A stretch of 64,000 nucleotides of DNA from Cyrtodaria siliqua. Lineage: Eukaryota > Mollusca > Bivalvia > Adapedonta > Hiatellidae. Position 1 is the first letter of the stretch, and each line of letters opens with the position of its first letter. This document shows positions 410 to 55,686 of this stretch, piece by piece. A program made the position numbers and the translations under genes. The stretch is taken from NCBI GenBank assembly GCA_037043455.1, contig JAWPHD010004352.1, positions 1 through 64,000 on the forward strand, written 5' to 3'. The notes under the pieces were generated by a model, which saw only the letters and a list, made by a program, of their open reading frames with translations, did not search any database and was not told where the DNA came from.

Positions 410-2894
410 GTAAGTTTTGTCAATATACATCTGCATGTACTTCTATTTATTGCAGAACAGTCAACATTTTCATGGTCAACATTTTCATGGTCAACATTTT
501 GATTACAATTTAAGAAAGCCCAAGTGTTACATCTCATGTGGGAGAGATGACAGGTATGTTAGCAAATGGTGCATATACTGAGGCCTAAATTAAAATATTG
601 TTTGTTTGCAGTTTGCGACCGACCCACGGCAAATCCGCCGACCCAAACAATTTTTTTAATATTTTTTTTTTTTTTTTTTTTTTTTAATATTTTTTTTTTA
701 AATTCTTTTTTTTTTTTTTTAATTTTTTTTTTTCAAGTTTTTTTGTTTCTTTTTTCTTGCATGTTCTGTTAATATTTAACTAAACCCTTTTTAAAAAAAA
801 AGACTCTATGTTTGCATGCCGTCGATGGGCATGCGTTAATAATAAAAATGTTTAAAAAAAAAAAAAATCCCTACCTACCGACCCACCCCTAAAAGCCATG
901 GGTCGGAAACTGCAAACAAACAATTTTTTAATTGGTGGCCTGATAGTTATGACTATTGGAATCACTACGCTGTTATATTTTCCGTCATATCTTCTATATA
1001 TTTTTACAGCTGATAGCAGGCCTATATACCTTCCGTGTGCAAGTGACGGGAACCAAGAAGTTTGGAGAGGCTTCCATCAACATCACGGTGAAGCCACGTA
1101 AGTCTTGATTGATACCTATTTGAAGATATTACTTGTAGAAATGCATTAGTACAGTACCAGTAGCTGAATTAAGAATAACATTAGAATCGGCACCTTACAT
1201 GGTGAATATCGTATACACCCATTTAAATGCCCTCGGGGACAATGTATTTTACAAAAGAGTGTTTATATGAGGCCATTTTCACAAGATTAGTAATTTGGAA
1301 TAAAGGAAATGGAATAATTTGGAATAAAGGAAATGGAATAATTTCTATAAAGGAAATGTAAAAAATGCTACTTATATTAAGGATCCTCTGCATTAAAAAA
1401 CGACATATTACACTTCTAAAATGTTTAAATTTATTGTGAGATTTTATTAACAGTAACTCCTAATATAGTACTGGTGAGTTAGTGTTCTTTAGAAAATAAA
1501 GGGGTGGGAAGTTGGTTAGAGGGGTGGGGAGAGGGTGGGGGTAGGGTGGAGCATTTAAATGGTGGGGATGTGGTATTTTGTTATTATCCTGTACTTGAGG
1601 CTATTCCATTAAAAATCTCAAGTGTGGGACTATGGGTTGGTTTAGGAACAACCATCAATTTTTTGTGTATCACCTGCAGAATTTTAATTATTTGTGAGGT
1701 ACCAATAATAGATCATGATTCCCTTAAAGGGACAATGTCCGTAACTTTTAGCCTATACAAAATAATTATGCTGACAAATATAACACACCAACCATAATTG
1801 AATATTTACTAAATAAAACCAAGATTGTTTTACGGAATTCAATAGCGGTACCAAAAAAAGAATAATCTTTTATTGGGATTGAACTGGTAACCTGCACTAA
1901 AATTACACTCTTATGTAATAATTGTGGAGCATCGCTACCGACTGAGCTAACTTTTTTTTCAAACTCACGAATGTATTACTACAGGCTTATCTGGGTCTAT
2001 GCTAATGTTTTCATGTAGACATTTCATTGAATAAAAATTAGACAGTTATTTGGCTATGCTCAATATCTGCTAACTTACGGACAGTACTAGTGTCCCTTTA
2101 ACACCTCCAACCACCAAAATATAAATTAATAATTATTGGTTGCCATTCACCGGAAGTCTTGTGTAAGTTTTACATGAACACCTATATCGTAAGCTTCAGG
2201 AAAGTTCATGGAAAACGAATGAAGTTGATATAATATATATAGCAGCAACCTGGGTGTTCTTTCAACATTTTGTTAAAGTATTTATAGAGTGGTAAAGGGG
2301 AAACTACTGCTCAAAATATGCTAAGGATCACTTTTTTGCTGTCTAAATTGCTTGCTGAATTAAATAGCATTATTTCTATTTTACATGAAATTATTTAGGG
2401 CAGTGTATGGTCATGTGATCTCATGACTTGATTCAGACTGTGTAATTGTTGAAGTATCAATGAAATTAATATCGTTATTGTGAATTAATTTCTAATAAAA
2501 TTATATGGAAAATAAAAGTGATCCTTAGCAAATTTTGAGTAGTATATATAAAGAAACAAGGTAAAATAAGGTTCCATAATGAGCTCTTGACATTTTGAAT
2601 TAAATTTACTGCATGCAGATGGTGTTTCAGAGTTATAGAGTTGCACCAAAGTTTTCTTGCATACAGCATAATTAGTTCAAACATATTAATTTGGGGTTGT
2701 GTGTACAGTTTAATTTTATTCAGTTGATTTGTCCTCTAAGTTGTAACGCTTCTGAGCACTTTGTCTGTTTCAGTTTATGTGCTAATAAGCATATTCTGCC
2801 TTTAAGTGTGGTTTTAAAAATTTGCTGTCATCAAGTTAGAATAGTATGATCTTCAAGGGCATCATTGTCTCTAGCTTCTTTTAATGGGTCTATA

Positions 2895-2928
<34 letters not shown>

Positions 2929-3801
2929 TTGTAACATTTATAGACTGAATATATGATTGCAAGTTTACCTTTGATTATGTGTTGGAGGGACTGTCAGCCT
3001 TAAAATTACACACAGATATAACTGTGATAAATACCTCAACATTGCCACGTCACATGAGACTACGCACTTGTAGATTATATAAACCTATTTTATTTTTCAG
3101 CTGCCAGAAAAAACCAGCCCCCAGTGGCGATAATCACACCCACCAAACTGGAGGTCAAACTGCCCAACTCGGCTATACTGGATGGATCAGGTATATTCCC
3201 CTTTTTAGCTCGTCTGTTTTTGAAAAAACTAGATGAGTTAGTGTCATGACTTGATCGGCGTCTGCATCATTGTCATCTTAGAATTTTGGTTAAGTTTTAC
3301 GTTAAGGTCCACTTTTTTCAGTAACTATTACAGCTACAGCTTTGAAACTTTGCATAGTTGTACTACATCATAACATCACACAGCAAATCAAGTTTCATAA
3401 CTTTTTTTTTTTGCATTATGTGACAGTTGTGCCCCTTTTTGAACTTAGAATTGTTATTAAGGTCCACGAACAGACGAGCGTCAGGCACCCGCAGGCGGTG
3501 CTCTTGTTATAATGGATGGTGATCCCACTTGCTACTGTTGTAATACTTTTACACACCTCCGTGGTCAAGTGGTCTACCTGTTAACATGTTTTGCAGCACA
3601 TAACTACATATCTATAACACGCACGTTTTCAAGTCCTACTAGCTTCTTTATTAATAAGCATTAGTTAATGATGTTGGCAATGATGATGATTGCTGACTGA
3701 TAGTTATATTGATGATGTTGAAAATGATGGTGGTGGTGGTGGTGATGATTAATACTACTGATGGTATATATTGATGATGATGTTGAAAGTGATGGTGGTG
3801 G

Positions 3802-3851
<50 letters not shown>

Positions 3852-6800
3852 GCTTACTGATAATTATATTGATGATGATGTTGAAAATGATGGTGGTGGT
3901 GGTGGTGGTGGTTATAATGATGATGGTGTTGAAATTGGTGGTGATGATGATGATGATGATGATGATAATCTGTATCTGCAACTATAAATGATGATAATTG
4001 TGATGATTTCATTTATTGCCAGACAGTACCGATGATGACAAGATAGTGAGTTACAACTGGGAGGTGGTCAGTGGTCCACTCCTGGAGAAGATCATCACCA
4101 GTGATTCTGCCATACTCAAGCTGACAGACCTGGCCCCCGGCAACTATACACTCAAGTAAGTCATCACCAGTGATTCTGCCATACTCAAGCTGACAGACCT
4201 GGCCCCCGGCAACTATACACTCAAGTAAGTCATCACCAGTGATTCTGCCATACTCAAGCTGACAGACCTGGCCCCCGGCAACTATACACTCAAGTAAGTC
4301 ATCATCAGTGATTCTGCCATACTCAAGCTGACAGACCTGGCCCCCAGCAACTATACACTCAAGTAAGTCATCACCAGTGATTCTGCCATACTCAAGCTGA
4401 CAGACCTGGCCCCCGGCAACTATACACTCAAGTAAGTCATCACCAGTGATTCTGCCATACTCAAGCTGACAGAACTGGCCCCCGGCAACTATACACTCAA
4501 GTAAGTCATCACCAGTGATTCTGCCATACTCAAGCTGACAGACCTGGCCCCCGGCAACTATACACTCAAGTAAGTCATCACCAGTGATTCTGCCAAACTC
4601 AAGCTGACAGACCTGGCCCCCGGCAACTATACACTCAAGTAAGTCATCACCAGTGATTCTGCAGCTGAAAGACCTGGCCCCCGGCAACTATACACTCAAG
4701 TAAGTCATCACCAGTGATTCTGCCATACTCAAGCTGACAGACCTGGCCCCCGGCAACTATACTCTCATGTAAGTCATCACCAGTGATTCTGCCATACTCA
4801 AGCTGACAGACCTGGCCCCCGGCAACTATACTCTCATGTAAGTCATCACCAGTGATTCTGCCATACTCAAGCTGACAGACCTTGCCCCCGGCAACTATAC
4901 ACTCAAGTAAGTCATCACCAGTGATTCTGCCATACTCAAGCTGACAGACCTGGCCCCCGGCAACTATACACTCAAGTAAGTCATCACCAGTGATTCTGCA
5001 GCTGAAAGACCTGGCCCCCGGCAACTATACACTCAAGTAATTCATCACCAGTGATTCTGCCATACTCAAGCTGACAGACCTGGCCCCCGGCAACTATACT
5101 CTCATGTAAGTCATCACCAGTGATTCTGCCATACTCAAGCTGACAGACCTGGCCCCCGGCAACTATACTCTCATGTAAGTCATCACCAGTGATTCTGCCA
5201 TACTCAAGCTGACAGACCTGGCCCCCGGCAACTATACACTCAAGTAAGTCATCATCAGTGATTCTGCCATACTCAAGCTGACAGACCTGGCCCCCGGCAA
5301 CTATACACTCAAGTAAGTCATCACCAGTGATTCTGCCATACTCAAGCTGACAGACCTGGCCCCCGGCAACTATACACTCAAGTAAGTCATCACCAGTGAT
5401 TCTGCCAAACTCAAGCTGACAGACCTGGCCCCCGGCAACTATACACTCAAGTAAGTCATCATTAGTGATTCTGCAGCTGAAAGACCTGGCCCCCGGCAAC
5501 TATACGCTCAAGTAAGTCATCACCAGTGATTCTGCCATACTCAAGCTGACAGACCTGGCCCCCGGCAACTATACTCTCATGTAAGTCATCACCAGTGATT
5601 CTGCCATACTCAAGCTGACAGACCTGGCCCCCGGCAACTATACTCTCATGTAAGTCATCACCAGTGATTCTGCCATACTCAAGCTGACAGACCTGGCCCC
5701 CGGCAACTATACACTCAAGTAAGTCATCACCAGTGATTCTGCCATACTCAAGCTGACAGACCTGGCCCCCGGCAACTATACACTCAAGTAAGTCATCACC
5801 AGTGATTCTGCCATACTCAAGCTGACAGACCTGGCCCCCGGCAACTATACACTCAAGTAAGTCATCACCAGTGATTCTGCCATACTCAGGCTGACAGACC
5901 TGGCCCCCGGCAACTATACACTCATGTAAGTCATCACCAGTGATTCTGCCATACTCAAGCTGACAGACCTGGCCCCCGGCAACTATACTCTCATGTAAGT
6001 CATCACCAGTGATTCTGCCATACTCAAGCTGACAGACCTGGCCCCCGGCAACTATACTCTCATGTTAGTCATCACCAGTGATTCTGCCATACTCAAGCTG
6101 ACAGACCTGGCCCCCGGCCACTATACACTCAAATAAGTCATTCTGTGTGTAGAAAAAATTACAGTGAATTTTTATTCTGTTTTCAAATATAAAGTAAATA
6201 AAGTGGATATGTTGTCATATTATTAGAATGTCTGTTTTAATTATGAATAAAAGTATATATTTACAAAGTGAAGTGTGGGATATATTGGAATCACGTTGTC
6301 AGTAAAATCCAGTCACGTAACATATTTTTGTCCCGTCACATCGCGTCACCTCACGTCGCATCATACGTTTGTCACGCATCCCGTAACACATTTTTGTCCC
6401 GTCACATCGCGTCACCTCGCGTCACCTCACGTCGCATCATACGTTTGTCACGCATCCCGTAACACATTTTTGTCCCGTCACATCGCGTCACCTCACGTCG
6501 CATCATACGTTTGTCACGCATCCCGTAACACATTTTTGTCCCGTCACATCGCGTCACCTCATGTCGCATCATACGTTTGTCATGCATCCCGTAACACATT
6601 TTTATTACGAGCATATCTCAAACAGTTTTGAATGGGTTGTTCTCAAACTTCATATACTCAAAACAACTGATGACCTTATATCCTTCTTCATCACTCATTG
6701 TTTATTGCCAAATTTATTACATAATTAGGGCCTTTTGTTTGACTTAGAAATTAAACAGAGGTATTCATCACCTTCAGAGATCTAGTTTTCTACGGAATGA

Positions 6801-9800
6801 CTTGGAATGAGAGTATTATGCAATATGTATATATAATTGTGTAAAGTGTGAGGTAGGATAGTTTCATGACCCACAACACACTCATTGATGGGGATAATAA
6901 ATGGTTTTACCATTAAAAAAACATTATCTTGATGATAGAGATTAGCAAACTGCCAATAATCTGATTGCAGTGCATCCCTCAAGTACTTACATAGACGCCA
7001 CTGCTTTATAATTCCCCACCTTTGGAGCTGCAAAATGTTGCCTGATTCTGAAATGGGAAATGTTGACAACTATATGGCTATGTACCATAGTGTAGAATTC
7101 AGCTGCACAAATTACAACACGTGCATGTGTCTTCCTAAGGTTCTTAATCCTAATGTCTGTTAGGGTACATTATAATCACATGTGGCTTTTAGAAAATTAA
7201 TTTGTGTTTGAATGTTCAATGTTATTTTATTTATTTCACAGACTGACTGTCACTGACTCAGACGGCTCCATCAACTCTACAACTGCCAATGTCACAGCCA
7301 TCAAAGGTAGGTGAACAAAAAGATAGTAATAACATTATGAATTTAAAGGTAATAGTGCACTTTTTTCAAACAACATTCATTTAAAAGGGCTCTGAAAAAC
7401 TCGAAAAAAGGTGAAATAATTATTAAAATAACACGAAAAATAAAGGAGATATGAGCTATTAAAAATTTGCAAAGAAAATAAATGGAATGATGACGTCATC
7501 ATGTCTTTTTATCATATAAGGCATATTGACTCAATATCTTTTAAAGCAGAGAAAATCGCTGCAAATTGATTAAATATAAAGATACAAATGTAAAATGTAT
7601 ACATTTTATGCTGATTTTTTATTTGCAGTGATTTTTCTTTGCTTTAAAAGATATTTTATTAAAATATATAATTTTTTATTATTTCAATTTAGAGACTGAT
7701 TATCCACCAAAAGCCAATGCTGGATCGGATGTGGTGATCCACCTACCACTGAACTCTGTCATACTGAATGGAAACCTGAGTACCGATGATAAGGCAATAG
7801 TCGGCTACGAGTGGATCAAGGCTTCAGGCGACAAACTGGCCGCAGATATGCAGGTATTTGTAATACACAGGTGTTGGGATGCATATCTGGTTTGTATTCC
7901 GGTGAACCCGGTGTGAGAGATTTTCCTGCTGTGTGAGTGGGTGTTGTAGAGATCCGGGTATTTGTTTGGATACACCTTCTGTGAACCAGGAGGTATGTGA
8001 GAGTATTTGGCTGCAGTACGCATTGCAGTGTCTGTATTGGTATAGGCAGAACCATACATTTATTTAGAGGTTACCTGTATTAAGAGTCCACTTTTTAAAA
8101 CTAGTTTAAACTCACCGCTCAGTTATAATGGTGTAAAGGTCATTCCCAATACTTTTACTTGCAATTTTAGCCGAATATAAAGAGACCATCAGAAAAATGA
8201 TGGTTAAAAAACAACAACCACCCTCCTAGGTGTCAGTGGACCAACATTTAACTGTTATACTATTTACCATTTTATTATCCTTCTTCATTTAGTGTCTCAG
8301 TGGCCGAGTGGTTAACGACTTTGTGTTGTAAACCTTCTCGCCTGTCACCGCTGCGGGTTCGAATCCCACTGGGAGCTCGACTTGTAAATGAGGAAGTGTC
8401 TATTCTTACGGATGGAGGGAGGCGCACATTACTGATTCTACTCAGGAAAAGTGGGTGGTCTGTCTCCACCACAAAAGAAAATCGACCGTCATATATATAT
8501 AACCTTACATGTGTTGAAAATGACGTAAAACACCATAAAAACATATCCTTCTTCATTTAAAGAAACGTGACAATAACACTGGTTACTCAATCTACTATAT
8601 AATATACATATATTGCAGGGTGCAAGGTCGTCAGAACTGCAACTGTCCAACTTGGAAGTGGGGGATTATACATTCACGCTGAAAGTGACTGACTCCGGAG
8701 ATCAAGTGTCAACCGCAGATGTTCATGTTTATGTCAAACCTGGTAAGATTCATGGTAAAACTCTCTCAGAAGACCACTGTAGCACCTCATAAGATTTTAT
8801 CCTCAAAAAGCATGTCTGCGAGCAACAGTATGGTTGATTTTATAGCCATTATATACACAGAAAAAAGTGGAGAGTAGAGGTAAAAGCCATATAATCCAGA
8901 CAGTGTTGCCATAGCGATGAATATAACATAATAGAAACCATATAATCCAGACAGTGTTACCATAGCGATGAATATAACATAATAGAAACCATATAATCCA
9001 GACAGTGTTACCATAGCGATGAATATAACGTAATAGAAACCATATAATCCAGACAGTGTTACCATAGCGATGAATATACGTAATAGAAACCATATAATCC
9101 AGACAGTGTGACCATGGCGATGAATATAACTTAATAGAAACCATATAATCCAGACAGTGTTACCATAGCGATGAATATAATGTAATAGAAACCATATAAT
9201 CCAGACAGTGTTACCATAGCGATGAATATAACGTAATAGAAACCATATAATCCAGACAGTGTGACCATGGCGATGAATATAACGTAATAGAAACCATATA
9301 ATCCAGACAGTGATACCATAGCGATGAATATAACGTAATAGAAAACAATTATCCAGACAGTGATACCATAGCGATGAATATAATGTAATAGAAACCATAT
9401 ATTAATCCAGACAGTTACCATAGCAACAAACGTAGCTATCATATATATATACACTGGAGCACTAACATTCCCTTCCGTTGGTAAAACCAGTTGATCACAT
9501 GTCATCTTGATCCATTTCAGAGCAAAACACCGCTCCAGTAGCCGTTACCCCAGTAACCATAGAAGCATCACTTCCTTTAGACAATATCTTACTGGATGGA
9601 AGTAACAGCACAGACGATCTGAAGATTACTTCATATCTGTGGCAACAAACTGGGTGGGTATATAACACTTTTGGTATCCCATTTTAGTGTGTTTTTTTCT
9701 TATATAAGTGGTACCGAAAAACGGTACCATTCCCAATGGCAAAAAGTATGGGTTTTTTCCCAAATGGAATGAAAAAAATCCCGATCAAATTTTTATTTTT

Positions 9801-12800
9801 TTGGTTGTAATTCGAGTGAAAACTTTATTTAAAGAGAAGAAGTGGGGAACTATATTCTTTTAGGTAAGGGGAATGAAACACTACAAGAGAATGTATACAT
9901 GGTAATGTGTTTGCAATGTATTTAAGCATACAATATTGCTTTTGTTTGATAGTGAAAAATTCCCAAATTGAGGCAGAATGCCGCAAACTTCCCAATTAAA
10001 TGGGTACCATTCCCAAAAGAGTGAAAAAAATCACTGCATTTTCTGATCTAACAGACCGAGATGTCTGGTGTTTTAACCTGGATGAGATCAGCTGAGACCA
10101 GATCTCTAACACTGTGTGATGATGTCATTTTAAACTTAAGGAAGAACTTGCAAAGTCTGTCTGCTAAAATTATGGTTGAAAAACTGCAATCACATCATCA
10201 TTCTTTGTTATAAACAATTAAAAAGTGCCCAATGAAGGCTTCACAATACACATTCAATATATTTGTCTATATTGTACTCTTACCATATCCCTGTAGAACA
10301 GCTAGCTATACAGGGTATCATTTGGCTAGCTCAAAAATCAATCTTACTTGTCTATATTGTACTCGTCCATTTCCCTGTGGACCAGCTATACAGGGTATCA
10401 TTTGGCGATCTCACGAAACAATCTTACTTGTCTATATTGTACTCTTGTTTCCATTTCCCTGTGGACCAGCTATACAGGGTATCATTTGGCTAGCTCAAGA
10501 AACAATCTTACTTGTCTATATTGTACTCTTGTTTCCATTTCCCTGTGGACCAGCTATACAGGGTATCATTTGGCTAGCTCAAGAAACAATCTTACTTGTC
10601 TATATTGTACTCTTGTTTCCATTTCCCTGTGGACCAGCTATACAGGGTATCATTTGGCTAGCTCAAGAAACAGTCTTACTTGTCTATATTGTACTCTTGT
10701 TTCCATTTCCCTGTGGACCAGCTATACAGGGTATCATTTGGCTAGCTCAAGAAACAGTCTTACTTGTCTATATTGTACTCTTGTTTCCATTTCCCTGTAC
10801 ACCAACTATACAGGGTATCATTTGGCTAGCCCAAGAAACACTCTTACTTGTCTATATTGTACTCTTGTTTCCATTTCCCTGTGGACCAGCTATACAGGGT
10901 ATCATTTGGCTAGCTCAAGAAACAATCTTACTTGTCTATATTGTACACTTGTTTCCATTTCCCTGTGGACCAACTGTACAGGGTATCATTTGGCTAGCTC
11001 AAGAAACAATCTTACTTGTCTATATTGTACTCTTGTTTCCATTTCCCTGTGGACCAACTGTACAGGGTATCATTTGGCTAGCTCAAGAAACAATCTTACT
11101 TGTCTATATTGTACTTAAGAAATAAAATATTTCCAACGGGTTTATATTGTTTATACTTGGAAGTTCATCGATACCAAGGGCCGCAGACCCGCAGTTTAGG
11201 TGTGTTTCAAGTCCCAAACACCATGTTTTGATCTCACACAATATAAACTAGCTGCAGATAATTTATTTGTTATCTGGCATGAATTTTTATTGTATTTAAT
11301 ACACATTTTCGAGAGATTGATCAAAATACAAATTTTCACAATTTACATTTTATGCCCATCTCTCTTCATCAAACGAGAAAAATATGCAGCTTCAACCTAT
11401 TTAAGTGTGTTGGAATGCAGCATCGCTTAAAAAAACGCATTCCATTGCATTGTTGTTTTGCATCTGACGTTTAAAATGACGTCTCAACGGTTAGCGTACC
11501 TGACGTCAGAGGTATTGTATACACATACATAACTTCTCCAATAACCAATCAGCATTGAGTATTTCAAGAAACCATGTTAGATTCTAGTTTCCATGTCCAA
11601 GAGGACTACCTATTGTCAAACATATTGCCTGACATTGAACTCTTTTGTAACCATTGTATCCATTTTTATCTCTACTGGTCAAAGGCCAGACAAGCTTATG
11701 GGATCACTTTTCGTCCATCGTCAGTCCGTCTGTCCGTCCGTCCGTCTGTAAGTAATTTTATAGAATCGACATCTTCTCTGAAACCACTTGAAGGATTTTA
11801 ATGAAACTTCATAACAATGTTACTTGTGATGGCCTCTCTCAGATTTGTGTTTTTCGTGGCCGCCAGTCATTCAAGATGGCCGCCATCACTAAAATTAGGT
11901 CAAATTTAAGAAATTTTAAGAAAATTCCAAACAACATCTCCAAAACCACTTATTCCATTCCTGTGAAATATCATAAACATGTTCCTTTTGTTGGCCTCTA
12001 TCAAGTTTATGTTTTTCGTTATCGTCGAATAATCAAAATGGCCACCACAGCGACCCAAAGTTTACATAGAGTTATATAGGAAAACGTTAAAAATGACATC
12101 TTCTCTGAAACCGTTTGAAGGATTTTGATGAAACTTAATCACAATGATCTTTGGGTTAGTCCCCATCAGATTTGTGTTTTTGGGGCCTCCAGTCATCCAT
12201 GATGGCCACCATGGCTAAACTAAGGTCACATTTAAGGACATTTATCAAACGACATATTACCACATTCCATTTTAGTTAAATATCATATACATGTTCCTGT
12301 TGTTGGCCTTTATCATGTTTATGTTTTTGAATCACATCATACCAGTAGAGCATCTACAGGCCCACTTGGGCCTCTTGTTTAATGGACCTCATTGCCAAAC
12401 ATTTAACTCTTTGTTTCATTTCCCTGTGGACTCACTAAGGCTGACCAAGACATATTTAAACTCTTGCTTCCTTTTCTTAATGGACCATATTGCCAAACAT
12501 TGAACTATTTTATATTTTATAGTGGGCCAACAGACCTCAAACTCATTGCATTTCAAAAGCGCTGTGGTCTAGTGGTAGAGCGTTGAACCCGGGATCAAAA
12601 GTCATGGGTTCGATCCTCTCCCATGACCATATGTGTTGTGTCCCTGAGCAAGACACTTTTCTGCAGTTGCTTAGTACTGGTTCTACCCGGAAACACATCA
12701 ATAGTGTTTAAAAAATATGTTCAGAGAGCTTTCGCTACAGTCGATGTAAAATAAATATGTTGAAAATAAACTAAACTCATTGCCTGCTATTGAACTCTTG

Positions 12801-15800
12801 TTTCCATCCCGGGCAAAGAATAGGGCCACTGCAGATCCCATTAGAGGGGTAGGCAGAGTGTCTACAATAGAATTTGCAGCAACTCTGCAGTTTTGCAGGT
12901 GAGAAGGGTCTAGGCCCAATCTTCGTATTTTATCTCATGTAAATGGAGGATGAGTCTGGCATGTTCATTCCTGTTAGGCACCATATAACCTTTCATGTGT
13001 TGGTGCACCTTCAAACCCAATTCAATTCCATTTGCCAGTGGACCAACTATTCTGGAACTGAAGGATGCCGATCAAGCCAAGGCGTCTGCTGGGGGCGTTA
13101 TTAAGGTGGGTCAGTACACGTTCAAGCTCACCGTCACAGATAAGGAGGATCTCAAGTCATCGAGCACACTGACAGTGAATGTGAAGCAGTGTAAGTCACT
13201 ACTGTCTTTAAAGGGACACTTGGTAATTGTGAAGTATTACTTGTCAAGAGCCTGTGTTGTTTAAAGGTTTATGGAACCTTTGCCACATCAGCAAGTGGAA
13301 TAAACACAGGGTTGGCAGAATCAAGTTAATTAAACTTTATAACTTTTCCCATCATTTTTTTTTAAGACTGACTGCCTTGTGTCCCTTTCATTTGTCATAA
13401 TATTCATTTGCTATTGCTAGTGGGATTTTGCTATGTAACAACCTTACAGTTACTTGCATTACTTGGGGATCAATCTTTATGAAATTTGGCATTAGGCTTG
13501 TTAGGGAAAGCTTTTAACCAAAAACTACACAAGTGATGTAACTTTACATCAAGTACGTCACGTTAAGGCATGCTGTTATGTGTTGTTCTGTGACGTTGTT
13601 GAGAGTTTTGAATAAATAGAATCACAAATTAGTGCAGATTTATTATTGAATTAAGTAAACTCATTGGCAAAACTGCTAGGCAAACTATCATAGCATGTGG
13701 ATATTTGCCAACTTGTTTAATATTTTCAACAATAAATTAGCGCTCATTAAAGATCCTAGTATATACATTTCAGCAGTGTTTGATAGGAAGATATGTCACA
13801 TGACATGTGTACCTTTCTGTTGCAGTTGCCAATGAAGAGCCAGTTGCACGTGCAGGCGGGGATGTGGTTGTACAGTTACCACAGTTGCTGGTGAGCCTGG
13901 ATGGTAGCAAGTCCTCCGATGACCACAAAATAACAGACTATCACTGGGTCAGGGATTCTAAGTCACTCTCTGCAGGGGTAAGTGATTACAAAATAACAGA
14001 CTATCACTGGGTCAGGGATTCTAAGTCACTCTCTGCAGGGGTAAGTAATTACAAAATAACAGACTATCACTGGGTCAGGGATCCTAAATCACTCTCTGCA
14101 GGGGTAAGAGATCACAAAATAACAGAGTATCACTGGGTCAGGGATCCTAAATCACACTCTGCAGGGGTAATGCAGGGGTAAGAGATCACAAAATAACAGA
14201 GTATCACTGGGTCATGGATCCTAAATCACTCTCTGCAGGGGTAAGAGATCACAATATAACAGAGTATCACTGGGTCAGGGATCCTAAATCACTCTGCAGG
14301 GGTAAGTGATCACAAAATAACAGAGTATCACTGGGTCAGCGATCCTAAATCACTCTCTGCAGGGGTAAGTGATAATAAAATAACAGACTATCACTGGGTC
14401 AGGGATCCTAAATCACTCTCTGCAGGGGTAAGTGATAACAAAATAACAGACACTAGTTAACCCAGTAACACATAACAAATATTAAGCAAGAACTGAATGT
14501 TGAACACATTATAGTTGATTCAGAGCCACCGCAAAGAGAGGGGAAGGATACATAGGAATCCGGAACCTGCTCTACTCTTACTAACTAAAAGGCTCATATG
14601 GTGTGTATACGAGTTGAAGGAGTTGTAGTTTCCCATCAAACACGTCTCCGCCGGGGAGAGAACCCACGTTGGTTTGTTAAAACATGACTTGCTATGTTTC
14701 AGGATATTTTAAATCATTCGGACCATCAAGCCGTCCTTCAGTTAGTGAACCTGGTGGCTGGACGCTACGTGTTCACGCTGACTGTGATGGATGCAGAAGG
14801 GCAGAGTAGTACAGATAAAGCTTCTGTCGTCGTAAAAGAAGGTAAGACAGCATTTAATATGAATTTCATGATTTTATTTCTTGAAATGCATTTTTATTTG
14901 ATGGATGCTTAGGGACTGAGATTTACCTGTCTGGCTTATGGATGTAGCAGACATAAGGGCAATGCAGGCCGGTATGGAGGTTTTTTGCAAGTTCAGCTTT
15001 CACCACTAGACCTCATTAACTATTTATAGATGGTAACATTGACAGTACAAAAAAAAATAAAAATCGATATACTTTTAGTTTTGTGATCTGTCCATATTTA
15101 CCCTCTGTCCATGTTTTCCTGGATTGCCCCTACACACATACCTCTATGAGGTAAGCTCTCCACTGCTAAAGGTAATTTGACTTTTTCAGTTCCTTTTGAG
15201 ATTAGCTCTCCCAAAGTTGTGGAAATGAAAAGAAAGCGTATGACCGTGTACATTTTGAAAAGCACTACATGAATTGAATTACCTTTAGCAGTAGAGGAAA
15301 GAGCTGACTGTGTAGGGGTATATATACTTTAGTTGAAAAATAATTGTTAAATATTAAGAAAATAATGAAGCAAAAACAGGTGAATTGAGAACTTTGTCGA
15401 CTAATTTTTATGCCTCTGTTTGAAAAGTACAGAGTTTTAGCATCTGTTCATCCGTCCGTCCGTAATAATTACTCATTCTGCAAAAATGCCATTTCATTGA
15501 TCTCCCTTATTGCCTCCATGCCAATGAGTATTCTGTATTTGCAGCTGAGAACAAGAAGGACATTCTAGAGTTGATGTTGGATGCAGACATTACTCAGTTT
15601 ACCGAGGAAAATAAGGTATCTATATGCATTCTGGTGTATTACTTTACATACCGTAAAATTGTATTTTTCTGTAAATTATTTGCAAATAATTCACTCAAGG
15701 TCATGCACGTGGCCGTATTCCATGAATGGGTGTAGTGAGTATGTGCTGCATGTCTTACTGTCGGGGTGAATATGTACAAATAATATGCCAATACTAAAGC

Positions 15801-21800: not shown

Positions 21801-24800
21801 GGTTACTGTATTGTTTCTTTTGTTTCTTTTCTCCACCATCATATGGAACATTTTGGGTTTAAACTTTATTTGAATGTAATGTAGGAATGAATGGTCAGTG
21901 TTGACCAGAGAAACATTGATAAGAATGGACCGACGTCAGATCAGACCACCTTGTTACTTGGTAAGCACGTTGCCCATTTTGAGTCATTAATGCCAGTTTT
22001 CTTTTCTAGTCTGCCAAAACAACTGTTCCGACCACGGTCGCTGTGATTTGAAGACAAAGCTGTGTATTTGTGAAGCATTTTGGACGCAGAATTTCTTCCT
22101 TCACCTTATATATGGCGAGAGTAACTGTGGTAAGTTAACAATATATTTTATTTATGCCCCCACCACCGAATTATGAGGGGGCTTATAGCATTAACCATGT
22201 CCGTCCGTATGAGTGTCTGTATGTTCGTCCTTCCTGAAAGGTTTGTGTGTCTGTCTCCTCCCACAGTTTTCAACCGATTGTTTCAAAACTTTACAGGATG
22301 ATTACGTAAGATGTCAAGACATGCATATAGATTTGGCATCAAAAACCACCTTGTAAGACCAGAGTTACAGCCCTTTTTAGGACAGATTCAGATTATCTAC
22401 CTCTACCATTATTATGAGCCCCAAGAAGATTCCCACATTCTGTCTGGACTTTTTGTGGGGCATTGATTGTATGTGGGGACCTCGACTTTAAGTCCCATTC
22501 GAAAGACTGGTTAGTTGGGAAATACTTCTAAATATTTTGATATTAAACCAAAATCGGTCCTGGCTGGGATTGAACCCGCGATCCCTGGGTTTATTACACC
22601 ACGGCGGCCACCTATGATTTATACAATGCTAATCTGTTATATATATATTGAAATATTTTTGAAAACTTTTTACCATGGTAATGAATAATAAATCCAATGA
22701 ATAATAAATCCCAACACGACACTAATACATGTATCCAGGAATCATCCCTAGCAGACGGCACTTTCTTGCAAAGTTGCTTGTGATAAACTGGTGAGGTACG
22801 ATATACTGTACAACTCACAACACATTGTGACACATGGGTAAGTAATGTCATATGCATAGAACGAAAGAAAACTTCAGTTGTGTATTTTGCATTTATTTGG
22901 TAAATGAAAATACGGTGCTGTACATTGAAGACATTCATGCATAAAGGAATACACCTGAAAATTTATTGAAAATTTATCTCCTGATTCCTGTGAATCTATA
23001 GCCATCCACACACTTTGGCCGGCAGTCAGTCGTGTAATAACCACATTTCCTCCCTGGAGATTTTGAATATTGTGCATAGGATCAGTTATGCCACTGGAAA
23101 TGAGGTTTCCATCTACAACCAAACTAATCCAAAGTTGGTGCATGTTATTATTTTCCATAAAATAGGAAAACAGGTACACACCGTTTCTGGGTGTTGTAAA
23201 TATCCCTCTAAAGCCATTGTAGCCATCTCCTTCATTCAGGACTATACCAGTGAGTTGTATAGTGTGTCCAGGTCCTAAGTTTGCCAAGTCATGGTCGAGG
23301 TAAGCGGAGAATGCAATGTTTTCTGGCACTTGTCGTTCTGAAAGAAAAAAGTATGCATTAAATGACTTCTGTTGATGATTATTCTACATTTGTAATTTCA
23401 TTTTATCAATTTCTATGCTTGTAAAATCATACATAAAACATCAGAAAATGTACAAAATTGTATTTCTGGGGACACATGCTGTCGTCTATTTGTTCTGATG
23501 TTACAATTCAAACTATTTCACCTGCATGGAGACATAAGGCACTGATATTTGACCTAGTGAACTTAATGGTTGAATACTTGCACTTGGGCCTTTTGAAGTC
23601 ACCTCAATGGATAAGGCAGTGTGCATTAGAGCTGCAGAACTTTGCCCACCTGGGTACAAGTCCTGGTGGTGGCATATTTTATGGGAATTTTCATCTTTCA
23701 ACTCATCTTCCTCTGCGGTCACTGTCCCAACCAATATGATCTAGAATTTGTTAACGGGACACCCTGTTCAATGTCATTTCATTTAAAAGGTGTATCTTCA
23801 TTGGAATGAGAACCTTTAGATACATTGTCCTTAAAAGAAAGTTTTTAGAAATGAAGATATTTTAAAAATACCTTTTCTCTTATTGTACCCTGACGGGTAG
23901 CCTCTTTGTGCCATTCGTTTGTGATTGGTGTTGCCTGTAGTTGTAAAGGAAACAGAGTTGTTCATTCCAGAATGTTGGTTTATGCCGGATATGTCCGTTT
24001 TATCAGTGTCAGTTTCCATGGAGCATCCACAGAGATATTCATTCTGTCTTACTGCAGACTCAGTCCCATTTAGTTTCACCTTATACTTTGTTGCTGCATC
24101 TGAAGATGTTGAATCAGTACTTTGTGATTCTTTATCTCCTGGATTGTCCAGTCTGCTGTTTACTCTTTGATGCCAGCTTTTCATCAACCAGTCTGTTGAT
24201 TGTTTATGTTTGCATGCTGACCGTGTTTTCTAATTGGTTTATTTTCTTTTCCTTAATTTTCTTTTCTATTTCATATTTTCCATTTCATCTTACATATTGT
24301 TCATTAATTTTGTCTTCCATATTTTTCATTTCTGCTGCCATATTTTCCATATTCACTTCCATATTTTCCATTTTTACTTCCATATTGGTCATTTTGCCTT
24401 CCATATATACCATTTTTGTTGCCATATTTTCCATATTCACTTCCATATTGGTCATTTTGTCTTCCATATTGGTCATTTTGTCTTCCATATTGGTCATTTT
24501 GTCTTCCATATATACCATTTTTGTTGCCATATTTTCCGTATTCACTTCCATATTTGTCATTTTTGTTTCCATTCCTTTCATTATCTCAATGAGCACCTTG
24601 ATTTCAGTAGCATCCTCGTTGTCTGGATCCTTGAGAATGGATGCTGAACAATCGCAAACAGGTTTACTAAAGTACCTTCATTTGTTCTTCCTAACTCCAT
24701 TATTCAAAGTTCAAAAACCAGCCATATCGGACCAGTAACAGCGGAGTTATGGTCCTTGATTTAGTTAAAAATGCTATATTGCTATATTTTGCCTCGTTAA

Positions 24801-27800
24801 GACGATAGGGCCTTCATTTTTCATCCTATCTTTACCAAACTTTACCACATTGTTACTATCAATGAAAGCTCGGACAAGTTCGAAAACCAGTTATATCGGA
24901 TTAGTAAAAGCGGAGTTATGGCCCTTGATTTAGTTAAAAATGCTATATTTTGCCTCGTTACGACGATAGGGGCTTCATTGTTCATCAGATCTTTACCAAA
25001 CTTTATCAGATTGTAATTTCAATGAAAGCTCGGACAAGTTCGAAAACCATTCATATCGGACCAGTAACAGCGGAGTTATGGCCCTTGATTTAGTTAAAAC
25101 TGCAATATTTTGCCTTGTTAAGACGACAGGGCCTTCATTTTTCATTAGATCTTTACCAAACTTTATCAGATTGTTAATGTCTATGAAAGCTTGGTCAAGT
25201 TCGAAAACCAGCCATAAACAGCGGAGTTATGGCCCTTGAATTTTTTTATTTTTTTTTTAATTTTTATTTTTTACTTTTTTTTTTTAAGCTCTATGTTGGA
25301 CCAGTCGGACCAGTAACAGAGGAGTTATTGCTCTTGATTTAGTTAAACAAGCTATATTTTGCCTCGTTAATATGGTAGGGCCTTCATTTTTCATCTGATC
25401 TTTACCAGATTCTTTAGTTATGGCCCTTGATTTAGTTAAAAAGCAGTTTTTTGCCCGAAACTTTCAAAAAAACATAAATGGCAGTCATTCGCTTCATTGG
25501 TGTTATAAGAGCCGTGTTAGCCAGTTGAGCGTCCACAGGCCCTCTTGGGCCTCTTGTTGTATTTTGTCGTTAGCTCTACTGACCCTAAAGGGCCAAGGGC
25601 AAATATATGACCGTGGTGTTCGTTTTGTTGATAATGGCACACCTAGTGCCTTAATGGCCCGAGGACTTTATGGCCATATACCTCTAAATAAGGGTATTTT
25701 AAAACAGGTAATCTCTTGATAGAGGGGGTCTCTAGAGCAGGTTTGACTATTGATGTTCAACTAAATATTTAAGCTAAGCTATTTGTCTGTACTTCAACTC
25801 AATCTGCAGTTAAGTGCACACTTGATTGCTGTACTTTGATGGTTTCATCATTCTTAACGGTCACACATCTTAGTTGATATAATACCCTTACAGTAGTAGT
25901 TCATTTAATTCTAACATGCATGACGTCACACCCTGATTCATTGGTTAAGTGGGGCTGATAATTTTCTTTACATAGAATAATGAGCTCTGTCAACACAAAG
26001 AGGCCCTGATACGGTCCCTGCAATTGTCCATTTTCAGATAGGCAAAAAATGATTCATATCTTAAGAAAATCTGCAATAAATATATTTATTATACCTCACA
26101 TAAAACGCCCATGCTAAATCCCCTTAGACAACAATGTGTAATTTCTTACTCACGCGAGGGTGATAGTAAATTGCAGGGTGATAGTAAAAATTTATCGCAT
26201 GCGCAGCTTTGATGCTCGTTGGAGTGCGTACTGTTTCGGTGATGTCATCGGCTCATTATGGTGAAATGCTATTTTTAACTCATCATAACTTCAAAAGTAC
26301 TTACCCTCACCACTGTAGGTTCGATCCCTCAGGGGCCTAGGAATCTTTATGTGAGGAAGCTATCCAGCTGGCTTGCGGAACGTCGGTGGTTCTACCCAGG
26401 TGCCCGCCCGTGCACGAAAATTGCCCGGAGGGGCACCTGGGGTCTTCCTCCACCAGTGGAAGCTGGAAAGTCGCCATATGACCTTAGCTGTTGATGCGAC
26501 TATTAAATCCAATTCAATTCAATTCAAAAGTACTTTACTGATTTTAATAAACTACCTAATTTGAAGAAAAAAAAATGAAAGAAAAAAATCCGGCGAAGTG
26601 AAATCTGTACTGAAAATGAACCTTATTTTGTCATGAGCAGATTTCGGTATAATAAAATAAATATCACATTCATGAGAGGGTGATAGTAAGAATGTTCACC
26701 CTGAGGATATGATTATCGCCCGAGGCAAAGCCGAGAGTGATAATCAATATCCGAAGGGTTAGAGGCTGGAGTGTATGAACAGAATGTTTTACGTTCACAC
26801 ATGGTATTATATACACTAAGATGTCTTCAGTATCGTTCCAGATTGGAGTATGATGTATGTAGTGTATGTAGTAATAATATGTTTTATAATAGTGAGAAAA
26901 AAAACATGACCGCATCAGTTTTATATTTTGCGTTTATTTAGTAAATAAATAAACCAGCAATGTACATTAAAAACATTTACGCATAAAGGAATACACCTGA
27001 AAATGTTGTCATACGCCAGGAGGCATCTCCCTCAATCGAATCCTCTGATTCATGTGAATCTATTGCTATCCACACACTTTGGCCAGCAGTCAGTCGTGTA
27101 ATAACCACATTTCCTCCCTGGAGATTTTGATTAATTTGCAAAGGTTCAGATATTCCACTCGAAATGAGTTTTCCATCTACAACCAAATTAGCATGAAGTT
27201 GGTGCACATTATTATTTTCAATAAAAAAGGAGAACAGGTACACACCATTCCTGGGTGTTGTAAATATCCCTGTAAAGCGATTGTAGCCATTTCCTTCATT
27301 CAGGACTATACCATTGAGTTGTACAGTGTGGCCAGGTCCTAAGTTTGCCAAGTCATGGTCGAGGTAAGCAGAGAAAGCAATATTTTCTGAAACTTCTCGT
27401 TCTGAAAGAAAAATGTACAAGTTAAATGGCTTCTGCTGATGATTATTCTACATTTGTAATTTAATTTCGTCTCCTATGCTTGTAAAACCGTGCATAAAAC
27501 ACCAGAAAATGTACAAACTTGTATTTCTGGGGACACGTGTAGGCTGTCGTCTGTTTTTTCTGATGTTACAATTCAAACTATTTCACCTGCATGGAGACAT
27601 AAGGCACTGATATATTTGACCTAGTGAACTAAATGGTCGAGTACTTGCACTTAAGCCTTTTAAAGGGTGTATGCCGTCTTGGCACCTCAGTGGATAAGGC
27701 AGTGTGCATTAGAGCTGCAGAACTCTGCCCCACCTGGGTACAGGTCCTGGTGGTTGCATATTTTATGGGAATTTTCATCTTTCATGTCATCTTCCTCTGG

Positions 27801-30800
27801 GTTCAATGTCCCAACCAATATGATCTAGAATTTGTTAACAGGCAACCGGTTTAATGTCATTTCATTTGAAAGGTGTAGCTTCATTGGAAAGAGAATCTTT
27901 AGATACATTAAAATAAAATTTTTAGAAATGAAGATATTTTAAAAATACCTTTTCTGGTATTGTACCCTGACTGATAGCCTCTTTGTGCTATTCGTTTGTG
28001 ATTGGTACTGCCTCTAGTTGTCATGGAAACAGAGTTGTTCATTCCAAAATGTTGGCTTATGCCGGAATCGTCAGTTTTATCAGTGTCGGTTTCCATGGAG
28101 CATCCACAGAGATTTTTGTTCTGTTTTACCTTAGACTCCATCTCATTTAGTTTCACATCATGATTTTGTTGTTGCGTCTGTAGCTGTTGAATCAGTTCTT
28201 TGTGATTCCTTATCTCCTTGGATTGTCCAGTCTGGTGTTTACTCTTTGATGCCATCTTTTCATCAACCAGTTTGTCGATTGTTTCTGTTTGCATTTTGAC
28301 TGTGTTTTCTAATTGGTTTATTTTCTTTTCCATAATTTTCTTCTCCATTTCCATATTTGTCATTTTTGCTGTCATATTTTCCATATTCACTTCCATGTTG
28401 TCCATTTTTTCTTCCATATTTTTCCATATTCACTTCCATATTTGTCATTTTTGTTTCCATTCCTTTCATTGTCTCAATGAGCACTTTGATTTCAGTAGCA
28501 TCCTCGTTGTCTGGATCCTTGAGAATGGATGCTGAACAATCGCAAACAGTTATAAACAGTATGGTCAGGATTATCATGGTTGAAATTTTCAGAGAAAATA
28601 TCCACTGTTAGATATTATATGTATAACATTCCACACCTAATGAGATGTCTGAGTGTTTGTGAATATTTCACAATAACAGTTTGCAGTTAAAGACACATGT
28701 TTTACTGCTTATCTAAAAGGTCAAATTTGTCATGAAGTGATCATCATAGTACATCCTTATCTGTTATGGTCAACACACACTTTTAGGATAACAAAAACAT
28801 GATCCATTTATGGCTGTTTAACAACATATTTAACCCTTGACCCGCTGAGCACGACTATAATGCGTCCATCGTAAACCCAGATTAGCCTGGGAGTAACTCA
28901 CAGGCTGATCACGATGTCTGGATGCTGATCAGTCATTTTCCCAAAAACACCCCTATGTCACATCAATGGAATGGTCTTAATTCAAAGAAGGAACAGTCCA
29001 TTATATATATGTAGGAGGTTAAGGGTTAAATCTTAAAGTCCGTTTTACACAGTTTCATGCATCAAAACAAATCAAACGTCAACTGCAGTACCTTCATTTG
29101 TTCTTCCTAACCCCATTATTCAAAAAACATAAATTGTCCATTTTTGTATTTTGTCATTAGCTCTACTGACGGATGGCTTATGCCATGGTCTGTTGTGTTG
29201 TCCCTCGCCAATGGTCTGTTGTGTTGTCCGTCGTCTGTTCATTCTTTAATTTTTTGATGTCAATACTCTAGCCATTACATTTTGTATCAAATCTTTACCA
29301 AACTTGACAATAGTCTGAATAATAAACACCAGAGTTATGGCCCTTGATTTAATGAATCATGCTAGAACACTCTAGCACCTTCATTTGCATCTGATCCTTT
29401 CCAAACTTAGTCTTAATATCGATGAAATCTTGGACCAGCTTGAAAACCGCCAATATCCGATTATAAATGTCAGAGTTATGGCCTTTGGTTTAATGAAAAA
29501 TGCCACATTTTGCCTTGTGAACATTCTAGCATTTGATTTTGCATCCAATCTTTACTAAACCTGTCCAGAACCTTAATATTCAGAAAATCTCAGATGATTT
29601 TGAAAAACACGAAAATCAGATAAGCCAGAGTTCTGGCCCTTGATTTAATAAAACGCACACTATATTTTGCCTTTTCAACACTCTGACACTAATTTTTCAT
29701 CATGCCCACAATATATCATTTCAGACTGGAGTATACTGTATGTAGTGATTGTATGTTTTACTGTTGTGATTACCTTTACTGGTGTGATATGGGCGTGTGT
29801 CTGCTGTTGGCAACGTAAAAGGTTTGTATTTAAAATTATTCAAAGCTTGTTTTACATTCATTACCTAGCAAGTTACAGTTTATACAAATCAGTATTGATG
29901 GTGCAGATGAACAGCATCAACTTGCTCTTATTGTGGTAGAAAACAGGAGAATTTAAAGAGACAAAAAAAGAATGTGAAATGGGGCTTATATAAGTATCAC
30001 GCTGTCCGTAATGTTGCGTAACATATTTTCGTTCTGTCGCGTTACACATTTTTATTACTTGCATACAGTTTTGAAAGGGCTGTTCCCAGACTTCATATAC
30101 ACATAACAACTGATCAAAAAGCAGGGGTTTTCAGCACCTTCAGTGATAGTTTGACTCACAGTGGCCTGTCACTACAACCTTGATTTCACAGGTCATAGTA
30201 CACAAAAAAAAGATTTCACTATAACTGATTGAAAATACTGTTTTAATTTTTCACAAGGTATATATGAAATTCATCAACCCTCTTTGTATGGTTTGTATTT
30301 AAATAAAGGCTTCGAAGCATTTCCTGCTGACTTTGATATCAGCATGCCCATGCCAATTAGTGACATATTCCATGGATATGATGAGAATAAATAACCAAGA
30401 TTCACAAAAGTTGGATTCCATCAAATGAATATTTTGAATATTTTTGAAATACACTTTTCTGGACAATTTAGTCGATAAGAAAATTTCAATTTATGAAGTG
30501 CTATGAAAATAAAACAGCAGCATGTCAGTATTGCTTTTGTTTGTTTGCATGATGTTTTACGTCATTTTCAACAAAGGACGGTCAGTTTTTTTGTGGTGGA
30601 GGCAGACCATCCACTTTTCCTGGGTAGAACCAGTACTGTACGCCTCTCGCCATCCGTAAGAATCAACACTTCCTCACAAGTCGAGCTTCCAGTGGGAATC
30701 GAACCCGCAGCGGTGAGAGGCAAAGGTTTACAACACAACCGGCTGGCCACGGAGATGCAGCCTGTCAGAGTAATGGAATACTAGCCATGGCCTCATTTCG

Positions 30801-41280: not shown

Positions 41281-42455
41281 GATGGGTAGGGTGTGGTTAC
41301 CGAGTGTAGAGGAGGAACACTACAAATCCCACTAGAGGCAGATGGGTAGGACATGTGCTTGATGGGTCGTGTGGTTACCGAGTGTAATGTAGTAACACTA
41401 CAAATCCCACTAGAGGCAGATGGGTAGGACATGTGCTTGATGGGTCGTGTGGTTACCGAGTGTAATGTAGTAACACTACAAATCCCACTAGAGGCAGATG
41501 GGTAGGACATGTGCTTGATGGCCCGTGTGGTTACCGAGTGTAATGTAGTAACACTACAAATCCCACTAGAGTCAGATGGGTAGGACATGTGCTTGATGGC
41601 CCGTGTGGTTACCGAGTGTAATGTAGTAACACTACAAATCCCATTAGAGGCAGATGGGTAGGACATGTGCTTGATGGCCCGTGTGGTTACCGAGTGTAAT
41701 GTAGTAACACCACAAATCCCACTAGAGTCAGATGGGTAGGACATGTGCTTGATGGGTCGTGTGGTTACCGAGTGTAATGTAGTAACACCACAAATCCCAC
41801 TAGAGGCAGATGGGTAGGACATGTGCTTGATGGGTCGTGTGGTTACCGAGTGTAATGTAGAAACACTACAAATCCCAATAGAGTCAGATGGGTAGGACAT
41901 GTGCTTGATGGGTCGTGTGGTTACCGAGTGTAATATAGTAACACCACAAATCCCACTAGAGTCATATGGGTAGGACATCTGCTTGATGGGTCGTGTGGTT
42001 ACCGAGTGTAATGTAGTAACACTACAAATCCCACTAGAGTCAGATGGGTAGGACATGTGCTTGATGGCCCGTGTGGTTACCGAGTGTAATGTAGTAACAC
42101 TACAAATCCCACTAGAGTCAGATGGGTAGGACATGTGCTTGATGGCCCATGTGGTTACCGAGTGTAATGTAGTAACGCCACAAATCCCACTAGAGTCAGA
42201 TGGGTAGGACATGTGCTTGATGGCCCGTGTGGTTACCGAGTGTAATGTAGTAACGCCACAAATCCCACTAGAGTCAGATGGGTAGGACATGTGCTTGATG
42301 GGTCGTGTGGTTACCGAGTGTAATGTAGTAACACTACAAATCCCACTAGAGTCAGATGGGTAGGACATGTGCTTGATGGCCCGTGTGGTTACCGAGTGTA
42401 ATGTAGTAACACTACAAATCCCACTAGAGTCAGATGGGTAGGACATGTGCTTGAT
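41275..42455 (+). repeat. 78-bp minisatellite, ~15 copies
   Basis: The unit contains gatgggtaggacatgtgctt and gtggttaccgagtgtaatgt at 78-bp spacing. It alternates cccgtgtgg/ggtcgtgtgg and ggcagatg/gtcagatg. The minus strand is open for 401 codons with a 26-residue repeat (IKHMSYPSDSSGICSVTTLH onward). Confidence 0.95.
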
Positions 42456-55136: not shown

Positions 55137-55686
55137 TTAATTAACTTTCTTCGTTCTAATTTTTCTTGGCAGTGGTGCACACAACTCCTCCACCCTGGGG
55201 GTACATCGCGCCCTCTTTGCAGATTGCGACACTTTATACGGGTCAAAATCATCATTAATCATTGTCCGACTTCTGGGTCGTGATAACTGCTGTAATCGTA
55301 AAGTGGCGATTGCATTAAGGGCAGAATTTGACACATCCCACTGTATCGGGCGTTCATCTTTAAACTGTCTGTGGTACGATTTAGACCCGGCAAGGGTTTC
55401 AACCCTTTCAGAGCTGGTCGCCTTCATGGCTGCGGGATTGACATGGTGATACTGGCCCCACTCCGTCTCGTACACTCCAAACTTGTCTTGGCGACTTCTA
55501 GGTTGTGCGAGTTGTTCCAATCGTTGGGTTGGCTGCGCTTTCAAGGCAGTATCACTAACCTCTATGTAAGGTGACCGCTCCATCTTATGATCAAGGTGGA
55601 TGGTCTTATGGCGACTAAGTGACATGATACGCTCTGTCGACGGTGCATTTTGTGCACTTTCCAACACTGGCCATATGGGAGTGGGT
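55137..55686 (-). CDS. THEG: THEG-repeat protein, terminal exon (distal of two)
   Basis: Acceptor ctttttcag before 55686; stop at 55139-55137. After one base that completes a split codon it encodes 182 residues with five THEG-type repeats: AQNAPSTERIMSLSRHK, ALKAQPTQRLEQLAQPR, AMKATSSERVETLAGSK, ALNAIATLRLQQLSRPR, AKRARCTPRVEELCAPL, ending PLPRKIRTKKVN. THEG proteins (SPMAP2 and SPMAP2L in mammals) are associated with sperm flagellar microtubules. The exon is homologous throughout to the exon at 57975-58581 and enters in the same phase. No separate upstream exon was seen between 55687 and 57974. It could be an alternative last exon of one gene, or the remnant or 3' end of a tandem copy. Confidence 0.82.

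What the first reader, a model, noticed from the sequence alone, without database searches (positions are those of the whole stretch)
4087..6137. Exon end and splice donor amplified together: 28 GT donors in one 2-kb array
The final ~63 coding bases of exon 4 plus the gtaagt donor form the 69-bp unit of a 29-copy array. The splicing machinery is offered 27 gtaagt sites and one gtaatt in near-identical exonic context. The period is exactly 23 codons and TAA is part of ctcaagTAAgt, so use of any downstream donor puts a stop right after the normal residues. The array is therefore either silent because the first donor always wins, or a built-in nonsense switch whose strength could scale with copy number.
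Basis: partly seen in the sequence, partly recalled or inferred. Interest (0 to 1): 0.87.

Follow-up and report, generated by a model that had tools for sequence, protein, structure and literature searches.

The report
Splice-donor minisatellite in a KIAA0319-like gene
The end of a protein-coding exon, together with the signal that marks where splicing starts, has been copied about thirty times in a row into the following intron; this is probably harmless, but it is one of a number of such arrays in this animal's genome and makes a good natural test of how cells choose between identical splice signals.

Summary
The array is real: thirty units (27 of 69 bp, 3 of 61 bp) at 4093-6138 with 29 GT donors (27 gtaagt, one gtaatt, one gttagt); the last unit lacks GT. 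The gene is a KIAA0319/K319L-like PKD protein whose ten joined exons are open.

It is not a one-off. The same gene has a second array at another exon end (eight gtaag donors), and a third lies at a von Willebrand-A exon. Two genome-wide patterns of three spaced donors gave 25 listed clusters; 12 of the 21 decidable ones begin at a coding exon end. Donor patterns exceed backwards controls 1.7-fold, an acceptor pattern 1.3-fold, with noise of about 1.5-fold between control strands.

Closest known thing: the amphioxus 'mirage' minisatellite, reported not to disturb splicing. Minigenes with two identical donors and long introns used only the upstream one. I therefore favour a mostly silent array born by tandem duplication at a TCAT microhomology. 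The immediate stop is not a designed switch: 12 of 14 readable arrays stop within 14 codons. No RNA data were available, so use of downstream donors is untested.

The parts
4023..4155 (+). Coding exon (PKD domain, phase 2 end) whose last 63 bases are the exonic part of unit 1 of array 1
   Evidence: acceptor tgccag, donor CAA|gtaagt
4093..6138 (+). Array 1: 30 tandem units (27 x 69 bp, 3 x 61 bp) of exon end + donor; 29 GT donors
7242..7306 (+). Next coding exon, the acceptor partner for array 1 donors
13826..13977 (+). Coding exon (PKD domain, phase 0 end) whose end seeds array 2
13923..14459 (+). Array 2: exon end + gtaag(t/a) donor, mostly 63-bp units; donors at 13978, 14041, 14104, 14178, 14241, 14302, 14365, 14428; frame open for 67 codons past the first donor; donors 2 and 3 in frame before that stop
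14703..14841 (+). Next coding exon after array 2
1010..14841 (+). KIAA0319/K319L-like gene, ten exons joined here (1010-1097, 3101-3190, 4023-4155, 7242-7306, 7693-7853, 8619-8742, 9521-9653, 13039-13190, 13826-13977, 14703-14841); further tblastn matches at 22024-22152 and 29724-29822; 5' and 3' ends of the gene not determined
   Evidence: tblastn with recalled human KIAA0319; Pfam PF22352

Best explanation
Array 1 is a mirage-type minisatellite. A tandem duplication began with its left break inside the exon and its right break just inside the intron, at the shared tetranucleotide TCAT, so that the unit carries the exon end and the donor (the sequence shows the shared TCAT; the event is inferred). 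It then grew by copying blocks of several units (order of unit variants shown; mechanism inferred). It survives because the authentic exon end stays first and complete. Exon definition should favour that first donor, because later donors would stretch the exon from 133 to 202-2041 nt while introns on both sides are long (inferred from published rules and precedents). Downstream donors are therefore expected to be silent or nearly so. The sampled parts of the genome are rich in minisatellites, and exon-end donors are one of the places where they are born.
For: Anatomy and uniqueness. TCAT at both edges: exon GAAGATCATCACC and post-array AAATAAGTCATTCTG. The 69-bp units are 97.5% identical on average, the last two units carry the weakened and the lost donor, every short unit is followed by FF. 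Open frame over ten exons. Same design at other exon ends: array 2, VWA exon on C287, and 12 of 21 decidable clusters from two donor patterns, 8 of the 12 with some homology support. Donor-triple match counts exceed backwards controls: 5238 against 3051 and 3446 against 2086. Paralogues on C39 keep the exon with about 14 and 56 copies. Minigene and amphioxus precedents.
Against: No RNA evidence for this animal. The donor-strength matrix used is recalled human values. The minigene paper also reports that over all alternative donor pairs about 60% favour the downstream one; the upstream preference appears after matching strength. The human CBS VNTR is reported, by title, to be associated with reduced activity. 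In the 257-kb sample GTAAGT triples are not special: 15 of the other 89 permutations of its letters do as well or better.
Confidence: 0.72

Rival explanations
1. Leaky nonsense rheostat: a fraction of transcripts uses downstream donors, meets TAA and is lost to nonsense-mediated decay, so gene output falls as copy number rises.
For: 27 of 30 units keep gtaagt with near-equal predicted strength (recalled matrix); from donor 2 on, the exon junction lies 65 or more nt after the stop, beyond the usual 50-55 nt rule (recalled); a human CBS VNTR spanning exon 13/intron 13 is titled as associated with reduced activity.
Against: Exon definition predicts upstream use; amphioxus mirages reported not to make aberrant mRNA; the stop is generic for this intron phase, and array 2 of the same gene lacks it.
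Confidence: 0.15
2. Compatible with the best explanation, but stronger: donor sites are favoured birth places for minisatellites (mutational hotspot, or retention because extra donors buffer loss of the first), not just random victims of a repeat-rich genome.
For: 12 of 21 decidable clusters start at exon ends; donor ratios 1.72 and 1.65 against 1.30 for the acceptor pattern; two donor arrays but no acceptor array among the ten joined exons of the window gene.
Against: Clusters were selected for containing a donor motif, and the share of true donors among all such 8-mers could not be measured (single-motif searches unanswered or without usable answer). Match counts overlap and are swelled by long arrays, and the two strands of one control differ about 1.5-fold (2485 and 1623; 1268 and 818), so ratios of 1.3 to 1.7 are not far above noise. 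No enrichment in the 257-kb sample. Acceptor clusters were not inspected.
Confidence: 0.25
3. Array 2, open in frame for 67 codons, makes protein isoforms with 21 or 42 extra residues in a PKD domain.
For: Donors 2 and 3 keep the frame and lie before the first stop; the intron from donor 8 is only 275 nt, where intron definition may begin to matter (recalled).
Against: The insert would repeat part of a PKD domain and probably misfold (inference); a unit with 11 extra bases breaks the frame at donor 4.
Confidence: 0.07
4. Assembly artefact: the true genome holds one copy.
For: Repeat arrays are prone to misassembly; no reads could be checked.
Against: Thirteen unit variants in an ordered arrangement; the same structure at other, unrelated exons, and paralogues with about 14 and 56 copies.
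Confidence: 0.04

Closest known systems
'Mirage' minisatellites of amphioxus (Adh3, globins BflGb6/BflGb9, PGBD5, troponin C); passages of PMC3087553 and PMC3902484 seen, the original 2002 paper not held
   Same: Tandem units spanning an exon-intron boundary, extra copies inside the intron, authentic boundary kept, units of 10 to 160 bp, edge units excluded from homogenisation
   Different: Another animal; 30 copies here (about 56 at one paralogue of another gene) against 3 and 6 in the two haplotypes of BflGb6; two arrays in one gene and a dozen further ones from two searches. Amphioxus shows both boundaries; I searched for donor boundaries and did not inspect acceptor clusters
Human CBS 31-bp VNTR c.1444_1467+7(16_21), exon 13-intron 13 (PMC2630376 and PMC1395315, passages; Lievers 2001 by title only)
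   Same: Unit holds the last exon bases plus the donor (24 + 7 by its name), 16 to 21 copies, polymorphic
   Different: Human locus, unit 31 bp; no comparison of sequence was made
Polyubiquitin UBC dual-specific splice-site array (PMC10809524, abstract and one section read)
   Same: Splice-site motif repeated at each tandem unit
   Different: There the units are coding monomers retained or spliced out in frame; here the copies lie in the intron and array 1 stops
Intron gain by tandem duplication of AGGT segments (Rogers model; PMC4974935, passages)
   Same: Tandem duplication across splice signals, once reported with several 24-bp copies in fission yeasts
   Different: No new intron is seen here; an existing intron is lengthened

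Membership tests
Mirage-type minisatellite | Tandem array whose unit spans an exon-intron boundary | tested here: met
   array 1; array 2
Mirage-type minisatellite | Authentic exon end retained first, open reading frame intact | tested here: met
   412 codons over ten exons without stop
Mirage-type minisatellite | Minisatellite turnover: homogenised units, decayed edge, varying copy number | tested here: met
   units 97.5% identical, last two with weakened and lost donor, block order; copy number varies between paralogues of another gene (about 14 and 56); no population data for this array
Mirage-type minisatellite | Regular mRNA splicing undisturbed | not testable with these tools
   no RNA data held
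Mirage-type minisatellite | Somatic or allelic length instability | not testable with these tools
   one assembly, one locus
Poison-exon / NMD switch | Alternative donor places a stop more than 50 nt before a junction | tested here: met
   65 nt from donor 2, more from later donors
Poison-exon / NMD switch | Regulated use of the alternative donor | not testable with these tools
   no RNA data
Poison-exon / NMD switch | Stop-bearing frame special to this locus rather than generic to the intron phase | tested here: not met
   12 of 14 readable arrays stop within 14 codons; a phase-2 intron starting GTAA always stops
Dual-specific splice site array (UBC-like) | Each repeated site has AG|GT so that it can serve as acceptor too, and units are coding | tested here: not met
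   array 1 donor is CAA|gtaagt or CAT|gtaagt and the unit carries an in-frame stop; actual use as acceptor not testable

The most novel reading that the evidence does not exclude
In this 2.88-Gb animal genome, functional 5' splice sites are preferred nucleation points for minisatellites, so that several hundred or more genes (a rough extrapolation) carry ladders of near-identical donors at exon ends: a standing natural experiment on donor choice and a reservoir for new introns.
Probability: 0.25. Interest if true: 0.75.

Novelty: new member of a known kind. Interest (0 to 1): 0.55.

Why it matters
In the papers I saw, boundary-spanning arrays of this kind are described from amphioxus genes and one human VNTR. 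Here they are common enough to be found from two pattern searches, in genes as unlike as a TTLL3-like tubulin-modifying enzyme, a FIG4-like phosphatase, a DIL-domain (myosin V-like, name recalled) protein, a filamin-like protein and an M16 peptidase. Arrays with many near-equal donors and one acceptor allow a direct test in nature of the first-donor (cross-exon proximity) rule, of how U1 occupancy behaves over tens of sites, and of whether such arrays seed new introns or tune expression by copy number.

Tried and rejected
A permutation test of GTAAGT triples in the 257-kb sample gave no enrichment; tandem arrays (TRF period 10 or more, 2.5 copies or more) cover 16.6% of that sample, so many hexamers turn up in some array. 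This weighs against a strong donor preference. The sample is not random: it is the window's contig plus stretches of three contigs picked for PKD matches. A search for relatives by protein was not possible. The kinase family search gave positions only and was not used further. Pfam found nothing at E 0.01 for 5 of 10 exon peptides; of these one (TTLL3-like) has a strong PDB match, two had none useful and two were not tried. The filamin and SacI matches are below Pfam's cut-off. Four of the 12 'exon end' verdicts (C8, C26, C104, C148) rest on reading frame, acceptor and donor alone, by my reading without a blind control. Of the 9 clusters judged 'no', I looked only at the fetched flank; C2 lies in an intron about 260 bases behind an exon-like stretch, not at its end. 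Guessed shares of true donors (5, 13, 25%) were put into a binomial; since the share is unknown I do not use them. My first exon bounds were off by a few bases and were corrected. Ideas only thought about and not tested: U1 telescripting, recursive splicing, introner elements.

Full report
What is there. TRF reports a 69-bp array at 4092-6141. Cut at its repeats, it has 30 units from 4093 to 6138: 27 of 69 bp and three of 61 bp (units 9, 14, 21). Twenty-nine have GT at the donor position (27 gtaagt, one gtaatt, one gttagt); the last has AT. Unit 1 is the last 63 bases of a coding exon (4023-4155) plus gtaagt. Ten exons from 1010 to 14841 join in frame into 412 codons without a stop, matching Pfam K319L-like_PKD (E 2e-78) and human KIAA0319 (recalled sequence as anchor). 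A search of the 2.88-Gb assembly with the 69-mer reported 30 matches, all in this array.

How it arose. The exon edge reads GAAGATCATCACC and the intron after the last unit reads AAATAAGTCATTCTG; they share TCAT, which fits a tandem duplication at a short microhomology. Ten further units are identical to unit 1; mean pairwise identity of the 27 69-bp units is 97.5%. Each of the three short units is followed by two F-type units, an order seen in 8 of 200,000 shuffles (the grouping was chosen after seeing the order), so blocks of several units were probably copied. A finer triplet test showed no excess (1 against 1.03). Unit 29 carries gttagt and unit 30 has lost its GT, as one may expect at an array edge.

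A second array in the same gene. Exon 13826-13977 ends GCAGGG|gtaagt, and a unit of mostly 63 bp made of that exon end and donor is repeated, giving donors at 13978, 14041, 14104, 14178, 14241, 14302, 14365 and 14428. Here the frame stays open for 67 codons past the first donor: donors 2 and 3 would add 21 and 42 residues, and a unit with 11 extra bases breaks the frame at donor 4. The two arrays of one gene thus have opposite consequences if misread, which argues that the frame was not selected.

Is it general? In 257 kb from four contigs (the window's own and three picked for PKD matches, so not a random sample), tandem arrays cover 16.6% of bases. One of them is a third case: a von Willebrand-A exon (Pfam E 2e-11) followed by degenerate copies of its end and donor. 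I then searched the genome for three AGGTAAGT spaced by 45-75 bases: 5238 matches against 3051 for the pattern read backwards; and three AGGTGAGT: 3446 against 2086. These are overlapping matches, many from one long array. The printed rows (the first ones in contig order) fall into 8 and 17 clusters by my grouping. I fetched a flank of each of the 25. In the first set 5 of 8 begin at an exon end (C8, C26 and three paralogues on C39) and 3 do not. In the second set 7 of 17 do, 6 do not, and for 4 the fetched piece did not reach the array start. Together 12 of 21 decidable clusters, or 10 of 19 if the C39 trio counts once; 12 of 25 if the undecided count as no. Homology supports 8 of the 12: the C39 trio (one peptide tested; PDB 5vlq, E 5e-35; that this chain is TTLL3 is recalled), C16 (FIG4, E 2e-7), C131 (peptidase M16 / mitochondrial processing peptidase), C137 (zf-UBP), C183 (DIL) and, below Pfam's cut-off, C123 (filamin). 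C8, C26, C104 and C148 rest on frame and splice signals only. From interpolated contig lengths, the clusters of both kinds (exon end or not) scale to about 630 and 345 genome-wide, a rough figure.

Is the donor favoured? Not settled. The 8-mers were chosen for being donors, and the share of true donors among all their occurrences could not be measured. The acceptor pattern gave 5348 against 4108 (1.3-fold), but the two strands of its control differ, 2485 to 1623, and so do those, 1268 to 818; ratios of 1.3 to 1.7 are therefore near noise. Acceptor clusters were not inspected. In the 257-kb sample 15 of the other 89 permutations of GTAAGT did as well or better. Among the ten joined exons of the window gene two donors and no acceptor lie in an array.

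Does it act on splicing? No RNA could be examined. Exon 4023-4155 has an upstream intron of 832 nt and a downstream intron of 3086 nt from the first donor, still 1178 nt from the last GT. PMC9225289 (abstract and part 1 of the Results read) reports that with flanking introns of 365 nt and two identical CAG|guaagu donors the upstream one was used exclusively, and that for strength-matched donors exon-defined exons prefer the upstream site; over all alternative pairs about 60% prefer the downstream site. Later donors here would make an exon of 202 to 2041 nt. Amphioxus 'mirages' are said not to interfere with regular splicing (PMC3087553 and PMC3902484, passages). In human CBS a 68-bp duplication of an intron 7/exon 8 junction is spliced at the distal copy (PMC2630376, passage); I take this to be the copy nearest the rest of the exon, which would fit the same cross-exon rule. 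So the array is most likely silent or nearly so. A leak with decay of the product remains possible: from donor 2 on the junction lies at least 65 nt after the stop.

The stop is ordinary. Of 15 donor arrays read past the first donor (two in the window, the VWA case and the 12 clusters), 14 could be judged and 12 meet a stop within 14 codons; the two that stay open longer are array 2 and the M16 peptidase gene. A phase-2 intron starting GTAA or GTGA always stops at once.

Copy number moves without harming the exon. Two paralogues on C39, 86% identical over 368 aligned bases of exon and upstream intron, carry about 14 and 56 copies (counted as a 14-base tag with up to 3 substitutions); in the third I saw 39 before the fetched piece ended.

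What it is. By its anatomy it is a mirage-type minisatellite, a kind named in amphioxus; a human relative in kind is the CBS VNTR c.1444_1467+7(16_21) (PMC2630376 passages). In the listings of my paper searches I saw no title or start of abstract that reports such arrays in another invertebrate; I did not read most of the listed papers, and the library lacks most subscription journals. What looks new is the animal, the length, two arrays in one gene, and the number found from two searches.

Noticed in passing
window 22877-23383 and 26980-27447, minus strand: Two open frames with C1q domains (Pfam E 2e-13 and 3e-17), lying between tblastn matches of the KIAA0319-like gene (22024 and 29724), on the opposite strand.
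   Followed up: partly
window 55140-55730, minus strand: Open frame with THEG (testicular haploid expressed) repeats, Pfam E 1e-44.
   Followed up: partly
window 24272-24572 and 28328-28460: Repeats with a 21-bp base period; minus-strand frames read KMTNMEDKMTNMEVNMENM and the like, perhaps coiled coil of the C1q genes.
   Followed up: no
window 10263-11115: 84-bp array (28 codons per unit) open in two plus-strand frames over most or all of its length, inside the intron between 9653 and 13039.
   Followed up: no
window 41291-42455 and 48400-49008: 78-bp and 31-bp arrays; the 78-bp array lies in a minus-strand frame open for 406 codons.
   Followed up: no
L034 (C287:494001-504000): 71% of this 10-kb stretch is tandem repeat, including a 39-bp array of about 92 copies next to the VWA donor array.
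   Followed up: no
C39 near 335000, 413000 and 505000 (L044-L046, L064, L065): Three TTLL3-like paralogues each with a 41-bp donor array of very different length; near 335k a piece late in the array repeats a longer stretch of the exon end.
   Followed up: partly
L041 about 790-915 (C2): An exon-like stretch ([37 protein letters not shown]) that recalls a ubiquitin-specific protease; the donor-motif array starts about 260 bases into the following intron and does not look exon-derived.
   Followed up: no
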